IMG/VR virus record: IMGVR_UViG_3300027973_000265 | Location: 1-20,061 of that record | Strand: one strand, 5' to 3' | DNA: 20,061 bases | DNA from: a virus | In this document: positions 10,697 through 12,038 of the stretch, piece after piece | How the letters are laid out: every line of letters starts with the position of its first letter | How positions within the stretch are numbered: position 1 is the stretch's first letter | Made by a program: the position numbers and the translations under genes | The notes under the pieces: generated by a model | Seen by the model: the letters and a program-made list of their open reading frames with translations, nothing else | What the model was told of the DNA's origin: nothing | The model's database searches: none

Positions 10697-10943
10697 ACCC
10701 ACCCTAGCAGAGCGCAAGCATTTAGCCCAGATCAAGGAAATGAACTGTGGGGTCTGTGATGCAAGTGGCCCAAGTGACGCACACCATATCGTCCAACATG
10801 AGCAATACCTTTGCATTCCCTTGTGCAAAGACTGCCACCAAGGGGCGTTTAACGGGATACACGGGCAACAAAGAATATGGAAGGTTTATAAAACAAATGA
10901 GATGACAGTATTGAACGAAACGATAAGAACCTTGCTAAAATAA
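10686..10943 (+). CDS. Ref/HNH-like nuclease, small
   Basis: This is an 85-residue protein with a TTG start that overlaps the ninB end by 11 bases, preceded by GGGGTGA. It carries CGVC (21-24), DAHHIVQ (His33-His34), a second pair CKDCH (47-51) and GIHG (57-60). This arrangement matches the C-terminal zinc/HNH domain of the Ref family (phage P1 recombination-enhancement function, a RecA-dependent nuclease), which often appears alone next to ninB. It lacks the N-terminal part of P1 Ref. It should bind zinc and cut DNA during recombination; activity is not proven from sequence. Confidence 0.7.
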   Translation: MNNKPTLAERKHLAQIKEMNCGVCDASGPSDAHHIVQHEQYLCIPLCKDCHQGAFNGIHGQQRIWKVYKTNEMTVLNETIRTLLK

Positions 10944-10960
10944 AGATGAGCAGTTGCCTT

Positions 10961-10986
10961 TGGGGGGTGCTCTCCCCCACCTTTTT
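10961..10986 (+). terminator. Rho-independent terminator after the replication block
   Basis: TGGGGG and CCCCCA form a six-pair stem around a seven-base loop (GTGCTCT), followed by CC and five Ts. It lies in the only sizeable gap between the replication and late blocks and ends about ten bases before the next start codon. Confidence 0.7.
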
Positions 10987-10995
10987 AGGATATAT

Positions 10996-11364
10996 ATGGC
11001 TTACGAAAACCAAAAAGATGTTGCAGACTTCATAAGCACATTACTCCACTCGGGAACTGTTACCCACTTCATGCACCTCTCAACCGATTCATTTGCTGTT
11101 CACATGGCATTGGGCGCGTATTACCCCGAGATCATTGAATTAACAGATTCGTTTGCTGAAGCCTACTCAGGGTGCTACGAAAAGATTAAAAACTTTCCAG
11201 AGAATTTCCATAATGCCAAAGAGCCTGTGAAATACATGGAAAGCATAAAAGAGTATGTCAAGAAAAATCGTCAAGCCATGCCAGAAGAGACAGAATTACA
11301 AAACATCATTGACGAGATAGCAGGGCTGATTGATTCGACTTTGTATAAACTGACACTCAAATGA
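10996..11364 (+). CDS. Dps/ferritin-like helical protein (DUF5856-type)
   Basis: The ATG at 10996 is chosen over the TTG at 10954, because the longer start would read through the terminator and TAGGAT sits six bases before the ATG. The product is 122 residues and almost all helical, resembling a DUF5856-type phage family as I recall it. His24, His36, Asp51 and Glu55 have spacings of 12, 15 and 4, the same as the E. coli Dps ferroxidase residues His51, His63, Asp78 and Glu82; the Asp67 equivalent is Gly40. A compact ferritin-like four-helix bundle is therefore likely. Iron or peroxide detoxification is an inference. It overlaps the next gene by four bases. Confidence 0.65.
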   Translation: MAYENQKDVADFISTLLHSGTVTHFMHLSTDSFAVHMALGAYYPEIIELTDSFAEAYSGCYEKIKNFPENFHNAKEPVKYMESIKEYVKKNRQAMPEETELQNIIDEIAGLIDSTLYKLTLK

Positions 11365-12038
11365 TCAGAATTTTTGCAGGCTACGACCCTCGGGAGGCGA
11401 TTGGGTATCATGTTTTTACCCAATCCTTGATCGAGCGCACCTCAGAGGCGGTAGCGATTACGCCCTTTTTTGGCAAGCAAAGAGACGGCTCGAACACCTT
11501 TATTTATCAGAGATTCCTAGTGCCTTACTTCACAGGGTTTAGAGGTAGGGCAATATTTATGGACGCAAGCGATATGCTGATGCTTGCTGATATAGCCGAA
11601 TTGGACAAGTTATTTGACCCCACCAAAGCGGTACAAGTAGTTAAGCACAATTACTTTACTAAGCACAAAAGGAAATACATCGGCACAGCGATGGAGTCCA
11701 AGAACGAGAACTATCCGAGAAAGAACTGGTCGAGCCTGATACTGTGGAACTGTGAGCATCCAGATAACAGGGTGTTAGACCCTGACTTTGTAGATGACCA
11801 CACAGGAAGTGAACTGCACAGATTCGAGTGGCTCAAAGACGATCAGATCGGTGAGTTACCAGAGGAATGGAATGTATTGGTGGGTGAAGATCAACACAAC
11901 GCCAAGATAGCGCATTACACTCTTGGAATACCAGAGTTTGAGCATTACAAGAATTGCGCGTATTCTCAGGAATGGCACAAAACCAAGTCAAGGATGCTTA
12001 ACGGGCTGATCAACATGAAGGAAAACGCTCATGCCTGA
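11361..12038 (+). CDS. Glycosyltransferase, GT-A type
   Basis: This is a 225-residue protein. The N-terminus IRIFAGYDPREAIGYHVFTQ is typical of phage and bacterial glycosyltransferases of the GT-A fold. The FMDASDM segment near residue 68 supplies the DxD-like metal and sugar-nucleotide site. Downstream NWSSLILWNCEH and GELPEEWNVL resemble the acceptor-side region of the same group. No membrane anchor is present, so it should act in the cytoplasm on a sugar nucleotide. The acceptor is not visible: virion protein, DNA base or host surface precursor are all possible. It is coupled by ATGA to the Dps-like gene and lies outside the packaging block. Confidence 0.75.
   Translation: MIRIFAGYDPREAIGYHVFTQSLIERTSEAVAITPFFGKQRDGSNTFIYQRFLVPYFTGFRGRAIFMDASDMLMLADIAELDKLFDPTKAVQVVKHNYFTKHKRKYIGTAMESKNENYPRKNWSSLILWNCEHPDNRVLDPDFVDDHTGSELHRFEWLKDDQIGELPEEWNVLVGEDQHNAKIAHYTLGIPEFEHYKNCAYSQEWHKTKSRMLNGLINMKENAHA

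What the first reader, a model, noticed from the sequence alone, without database searches (positions are those of the whole stretch)
10996..11364. Phage protein with Dps-like ferroxidase residue spacing
His24, His36, Asp51 and Glu55 have the same spacing (12, 15, 4) as His51, His63, Asp78 and Glu82 of E. coli Dps, in an all-helical 122-residue protein. Only the Asp67 equivalent is missing (Gly40). A phage-encoded minimal Dps/ferritin could protect phage DNA from peroxide or sequester iron during infection, and could be an undescribed function for this family.
Basis: partly seen in the sequence, partly recalled or inferred. Interest (0 to 1): 0.62.

Follow-up and report, generated by a model that had tools for sequence, protein, structure and literature searches.

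The report
Small Dps-like iron protein in phages
The gene makes a short phage protein that is a distant relative of Dps, the bacterial protein that oxidises iron and shields DNA; the family, which includes gene rI.-1 of phage T4, keeps Dps's iron-oxidising residues in every copy examined and turns up in purified virus particles, but no one has tested its chemistry.

Summary
In detail: the 122-aa protein at 10996-11364 has H24, H36, D51 and E55 with E. coli Dps spacing. It belongs to DUF5856 (PF19174) / phrog_858, already labelled 'starvation-inducible transcriptional regulator'. In 62 representatives (down to 21% identity) eight columns are invariant, including all four residues. A confident model (pLDDT 93) is a four-helix bundle; its best 50 PDB matches are all Dps. 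Profile-profile comparison gives E = 1e-6 against Dps; shuffled and reversed profiles, bacterioferritin and ferritin score far lower. One correction: the partner of Dps His51 is H27, not H24. Most members lost three residues in the A-B turn, so H24 matches by coincidence; RB49-type members keep the Dps spacing. The missing Asp67 partner is Asp or Glu in T4-like members. The two half-sites lie far apart on one helix, so a Dps-like dimer is predicted. Published proteomics found DUF5856 members in virions of LIMEstone1, Sajous1 (there called ferritin-like by Phyre2) and ValerieMcCarty03/04. T4 rI.-1 is a member with a complete site. Likely role: a late-expressed, perhaps virion-carried, Dps-type iron oxidase/sequestrant. 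Activity, oligomer and DNA binding are untested.

The parts
10996..11364 (+). DUF5856 / phrog_858 Dps-like protein, 122 aa, 14.0 kDa, pI 5.0; predicted helices at residues 3-29, 33-60, 77-92, 99-120
11074..11076 (+). codon of His27, invariant, homologous to Dps His51
11101..11103 (+). codon of His36, invariant, homologous to Dps His63
11113..11115 (+). codon of Gly40, position of Dps Asp67; G/R/N in most homologues, E in RB49-type, D in T4 rI.-1
11122..11124 (+). codon of Tyr43, invariant in the 62-sequence set, role unknown (Phe in T4 rI.-1)
11146..11148 (+). codon of Asp51, invariant, homologous to Dps Asp78
11158..11160 (+). codon of Glu55, invariant, homologous to Dps Glu82
10936..10941 (+). 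TAAAAT, a -10-like hexamer; TACAAT or TAGAAT at about the same place in many relatives
   Evidence: seen by eye; the sigma-70 scan did not list it
10950..10958 (+). GCAGTTGCC, conserved 9-mer (GCAGTTGyC) between the -10-like hexamer and the hairpin
10961..10986 (+). terminator-like hairpin plus T-run just upstream of the ribosome-binding site; stem kept by compensatory changes
11361..12038 (+). next gene, overlapping the stop by ATGA; present in the close relatives next to DUF5856; phrog_28018, unknown function

Best explanation
The gene encodes a shortened Dps-type member of the ferritin superfamily. Shown: homology to Dps, a confident four-helix-bundle model, and invariance of H27, H36, D51 and E55 at the Dps ferroxidase positions. 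Inferred: H27/H36 of one chain and D51/E55 of a two-fold partner form an inter-subunit iron site, perhaps helped by H24, where Fe(II) is oxidised by H2O2 or O2. The protein would lower free iron and peroxide near phage DNA. Because the gene opens the block leading to terminase and portal, and relatives occur in purified virions of three phages, it is probably made late and may be carried in or on the particle. Without the N-terminal tail it probably does not bind DNA the way E. coli Dps does.
For: Family: DUF5856 E=7e-23, phrog_858. Invariant columns H24 H27 H36 Y43 D51 E55 G59 L119 in 62 diverse sequences. In a joint alignment of 11 DUF5856 and 6 Dps proteins the only invariant columns besides Met1 are H27, H36, D51, E55. 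hhalign vs Dps: probability 91%, E=1.3e-6, 110 columns; a local repeat scored 36.4 vs 21.3 for the best of 100 column shuffles and 18.5 for the reversed profile. Single-sequence targets: E. coli Dps 28.2, Bfr 7.7, FtnA 9.4. PDB sequence searches are led or dominated by Dps proteins. Model pLDDT 93.3, pTM 0.86; all top 50 PDB fold matches are Dps, TM up to 0.79; a second member gives mostly Dps. The short Dps of phage Gilson also hits DUF5856 weakly. Virions: LIMEstone1 ORF078, Sajous1 gp217, ValerieMcCarty03 gp108.
Against: No member has a measured metal, activity or oligomer. Foldseek E-values are individually weak (0.04-0.3). The short BC helix at the Dps two-fold contact is missing in the model. 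Asp67's partner is absent in this protein and in most homologues. The tail that binds DNA in E. coli Dps is absent. Virion detection is in distant relatives (about 23-35% identity), and proteins can contaminate CsCl preparations. Kutterviruses plated normally on tonB and feoB mutants (PMC10892097). Modern T4 sublines carry a frameshift in rI.-1 (PMC8573959), so it is dispensable in the laboratory.
Confidence: 0.6

Rival explanations
1. A ferritin-like virion component whose invariant His/Asp/Glu site binds a metal (for example zinc) only to hold the oligomer together, with no redox function.
For: Virion detection in three phages; loss of the Asp67 ligand and the BC helix; gene next to portal or terminase in several lineages.
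Against: The invariant residues are the ferroxidase ones; T4 rI.-1 and RB49-type members keep an acidic residue at all the Dps ligand positions.
Confidence: 0.2
2. A lysis-inhibition accessory, as proposed for T4 rI.-1.
For: Plasmid over-expression of T4 rI.-1 slightly prolonged lysis inhibition (review PMC6832632); rI.-1 lies beside rI.
Against: The effect is small and by over-expression; no rI homologue was noticed in the window; RaK2 has the gene without rI, t or rIII (PMC3622015).
Confidence: 0.07
3. A 'Ferrojan horse' device: iron carried on the tail so that the particle uses host iron receptors.
For: Proposed for Sajous1 after its ferritin-like gp217 was found in virions (PMC10892097).
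Against: The same paper saw no dependence on TonB or FeoB; Dps-type proteins oxidise and store iron rather than display it.
Confidence: 0.05
4. A transcription regulator, as the PHROGs/RefSeq name says.
For: Name only.
Against: No DNA-binding domain; four-helix bundle with acidic pI 5.0; the name looks derived from Dps.
Confidence: 0.03

Closest known systems
Dps family (E. coli Dps, H. pylori NapA, B. subtilis MrgA, M. smegmatis Dps)
   Same: Four-helix bundle; H51/H63/D78/E82 equivalents H27/H36/D51/E55; profile similarity over 110 columns.
   Different: 122 vs about 145-167 aa; no BC helix in the model; A-B turn three residues shorter; no N-terminal tail; Asp67 position Gly; extra invariant His24; no Pfam Ferritin match.
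DUF5856 (PF19174) / phrog_858, including T4 rI.-1 (MobD.6), LIMEstone1 ORF078, Sajous1 gp217
   Same: Full membership by sequence; same invariant His/Asp/Glu residues.
   Different: T4 and RB49 members have an N-terminal extension and an acidic residue at the Asp67 position; the window protein has neither.
Classical phage-encoded Dps (Gratiaviridae, Lactobacillus phages, Streptomyces phages such as Gilson)
   Same: Phage-encoded, same ferroxidase residues; Gilson's is also short (132 aa).
   Different: They keep HW, AER and Dps spacing; Gilson's scores as Pfam Ferritin directly; they look like separate acquisitions (not tested by a tree).
Ferritin and bacterioferritin
   Same: Same superfamily fold.
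   Different: Their di-iron site lies within one bundle; no profile similarity found.

Membership tests
DUF5856 / phrog_858 | Score above the curated Pfam cut-off | tested here: met
   81.9 bits vs 34.6; phrog_858 E=9e-27
Dps | Four-helix ferritin-like bundle | tested here: met
   pLDDT 93.3 model; top 50 PDB matches all Dps, TM to 0.79, but E 0.04-0.3
Dps | Ferroxidase ligands His51, His63, Asp78, Glu82 | tested here: met
   H27, H36, D51, E55 aligned and invariant
Dps | Fifth ligand Asp67 | tested here: not met
   Gly40; D in T4 rI.-1, E in RB49-type; Gln in two of ten Dps compared
Dps | Short BC helix at the two-fold interface | tested here: not met
   Residues 61-76 are loop in the model
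Dps | Direct match to Pfam Ferritin (PF00210) or an NCBIfam Dps model above cut-off | tested here: not met
   No PF00210 match in the window; weak single-member hits only
Dps | Dodecamer with inter-subunit sites | not testable with these tools
   Only single chains could be modelled; the separation of the two half-sites on helix 33-60 implies an inter-subunit site
Dps | Fe(II) oxidation and mineral storage | not testable with these tools
   needs purified protein
Dps | DNA binding by a basic N-terminal tail (E. coli type; not universal in Dps) | tested here: not met
   Helix A starts at residue 3; pI 5.0
Ferritin / bacterioferritin | Profile similarity to FtnA or Bfr | tested here: not met
   hhalign scores 9.4 and 7.7 vs 28.2 for Dps

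The most novel reading that the evidence does not exclude
DUF5856, including T4 rI.-1, is a widespread minimal Dps family that tailed phages package in their particles as a portable iron oxidase and peroxide sink protecting the incoming genome; a common phage function unrecognised even in T4.
Probability: 0.3. Interest if true: 0.78.

Novelty: new variant of a known kind. Interest (0 to 1): 0.52.

Why it matters
More than a thousand sequenced phage records, T4 among them, carry this gene under 'hypothetical protein' or the misleading name 'transcriptional regulator'. Reading it as a compact Dps gives a direct, cheap test in T4: intact and naturally frameshifted rI.-1 sublines already exist. 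If members oxidise iron inside virions, this links phage particles to iron and peroxide chemistry and explains repeated 'unknown structural protein' findings in proteomics.

Tried and rejected
Single-sequence PDB search found nothing useful; profiles were needed. Genome contigs: A2 was too diverse to give a pattern; the A1 scan (close relatives only) found no cellular copy, which says nothing about distant ones. Pfam SesA, Mre11_C, P4Ha_N and the de novo bundle PDB hits rejected as generic helical matches. Transcription-regulator reading rejected for lack of a DNA-binding fold. The literature library holds no paper using the name DUF5856; Golec et al. 2010 is not held, so it was read through a review. 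The leader RNA matches no Rfam family. A dimer model could not be run with the tools. An early molecular-weight calculation read only the first line of the file and was redone.

Full report
WHAT IS THERE. The open reading frame at 10996-11364 gives the 122-aa protein described, with H24, H36, D51 and E55 at the stated positions and Gly40 where Dps has Asp67. It scores 81.9 bits to DUF5856 (PF19174; cut-off 34.6) and E = 9e-27 to phrog_858, 'starvation-inducible transcriptional regulator'. Relatives are common: 646 phage records by tblastn from this protein, 1398 from the RB49-type member, and 559 stretches of viral contigs from close-relative patterns alone.

CHANCE AND CONSERVATION. The four-residue spacing alone arises in 132 of 200,000 shuffles of the protein, and the window has no other instance in six frames. 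Conservation is the stronger evidence. In 62 representatives, down to 21% identity, only eight columns are invariant: H24, H27, H36, Y43, D51, E55, G59, L119. The protein has 24 His/Asp/Glu residues; five are invariant, and these five include all four named. All 290 homologues read from fetched loci have HxxH...H...D...E. T4 rI.-1 keeps the same set (H30, H33, H42, D57, E61), with Asp46 at the Asp67 position.

RELATION TO DPS. A profile of the family finds Helicobacter NapA and other Dps proteins in the PDB at E about 0.001-0.1; the remaining hits are mostly designed bundles or coiled coils. Profile-profile comparison with ten Dps sequences gives probability 91%, E = 1.3e-6, over 110 columns. 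A local repeat scored 36.4; the best of 100 column-shuffled profiles scored 21.3 and the reversed profile 18.5. Against single sequences, E. coli Dps scored 28.2, bacterioferritin 7.7 and ferritin A 9.4; other single Dps sequences ranged from 12 to 26. When 11 DUF5856 and 6 Dps proteins are aligned together, the only invariant columns besides Met1 are H27, H36, D51 and E55, which are Dps H51, H63, D78 and E82. The Streptomyces phage Gilson Dps (132 aa) matches Pfam Ferritin strongly and DUF5856 weakly, a possible bridge.

CORRECTION OF THE FIRST HISTIDINE. The alignments instead pair H27 with His51, with three residues missing in the A-B turn. In 288 of 290 homologues the H27-H36 distance is 9; in two RB49-type ones it is 12, the Dps value, counted from the second His. 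So the exact 12 from H24 is a coincidence produced by HxxH plus a 3-residue deletion. H24 is nevertheless invariant; Dps mostly has Lys, sometimes His, at that position. An extra ligand role for H24 is inference.

STRUCTURE. AlphaFold2 on the 62-sequence alignment gives pLDDT 93.3, pTM 0.86 and helices 3-29, 33-60, 77-92, 99-120. All 50 best PDB matches are Dps, with TM-score (query) up to 0.79 (2yw7), although individual E-values are 0.04-0.3. The RB49-type member (pLDDT 88.8) again gives mostly Dps, best E 0.006. The Dps BC helix is absent and there is no N-terminal tail. H36 and D51/E55 lie on one uninterrupted helix, 15 and 19 residues apart (about 22 and 28 A at 1.5 A per residue). They cannot form one site in a single chain, but in Dps the two halves come from two-fold-related subunits (established knowledge of Dps structures). 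Invariance of both halves therefore argues for a Dps-like dimer. The oligomer itself was not modelled.

VIRIONS. Three published proteomes contain DUF5856 members; family membership was checked here on the deposited genomes. LIMEstone1 ORF078 is a 'confirmed structural protein', 13.15 kDa, 3 unique peptides, 28% coverage (PMC3296691; annotation; DUF5856). Sajous1 gp217 had 10 spectra in CsCl-purified phage and a Phyre2 'Ferritin' model at 96.7 confidence (PMC10892097; it is DUF5856 and 91% identical to LIMEstone1 ORF078). ValerieMcCarty03/04 gp108/100 had 26/27 spectra (PMC13119998; DUF5856). Ackermannviridae and Straboviridae are thus both represented. For the window's own phage, packaging is inference.

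CONTEXT IN THE WINDOW. Upstream lie RusA, a PAPS-reductase-like gene, NinB and an HNH-like gene; downstream lie a phrog_28018 gene that overlaps the stop codon, then terminase and portal genes. The order DUF5856, phrog_28018 gene, terminase is widely shared among the 80 nearest relatives, with RusA and NinB upstream in many. Between the HNH-like gene and the start codon sits a conserved leader: a -10-like hexamer, GCAGTTGyC, and a terminator-like hairpin directly before the ribosome-binding site. The hairpin keeps pairing through compensatory changes: 91.8% of cells paired against 80.8% shuffled, 11 double-change cells against 4.0, 0 of 500 shuffles as high; the sequences are related, so the shuffle count is not a probability. 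It resembles a regulated start of a late operon, as in lambda's late promoter and its early terminator (comparison from memory, a lead only).

MECHANISM. Most likely a Dps-type protein that binds iron between subunits and oxidises it, lowering iron-driven peroxide damage to phage DNA, made with the late genes and possibly carried by the particle. Shown: homology, fold prediction, invariant site, virion presence in relatives. Inferred: oligomer, iron, oxidation, protection, packaging here. Against it: no biochemistry, missing BC helix, missing Asp67 partner in most members, dispensability of T4 rI.-1 (frameshift at Glu61 in laboratory sublines, PMC8573959).

WHAT IS KNOWN. Classical Dps genes in phages are published (PMC8008677, PMC6669764). 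phrog_858 carries a Dps-like name, and one member has been called ferritin-like. I found no paper among those held that identifies DUF5856 or T4 rI.-1 as Dps homologues with a conserved ferroxidase site. Hence: a new variant of a known kind, moderately interesting and directly testable.

Noticed in passing
window 10936-10990; same place in L006, L010, L016, L022, L045, L056, L101, L131, L139, L149, L150 and others: Conserved leader before the gene: -10-like hexamer (in many), GCAGTTGyC, then a terminator-like hairpin with compensatory changes ending just before the ribosome-binding site. No Rfam match. Possibly an antitermination or attenuation site opening the late operon.
   Followed up: partly
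L296 1320-1706 (T4 rI.-1, NP_049716.1): T4 rI.-1 / MobD.6 is a DUF5856 member with a complete Dps-like residue set; modern T4 sublines (Barr, Rao) carry a frameshift at Glu61, the Glu82 equivalent, relative to T4-Hancock (PMC8573959).
   Followed up: partly
BFVD matches of the model: Structural relatives appear among giant-virus predictions (Pithovirus LCPAC404, Fadolivirus) and crAss-like phages annotated DpsA or DNA-binding protein.
   Followed up: no
L083, L084, L088, L295, L087, L311: The gene's neighbourhood differs by phage type: directly after portal in L084 and L088, beside unknown structural genes in Ackermannviridae, next to rI in T4-like phages.
   Followed up: partly
window 11361-12038: The gene overlapping the stop (phrog_28018, unknown function) accompanies DUF5856 in the close relatives; sequence looks glycosyltransferase-like by eye, no Pfam hit.
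   Followed up: no
L305 268-663 (Streptomyces phage Gilson gp20): A 132-aa phage Dps that matches Pfam Ferritin and weakly DUF5856: possible evolutionary link.
   Followed up: no
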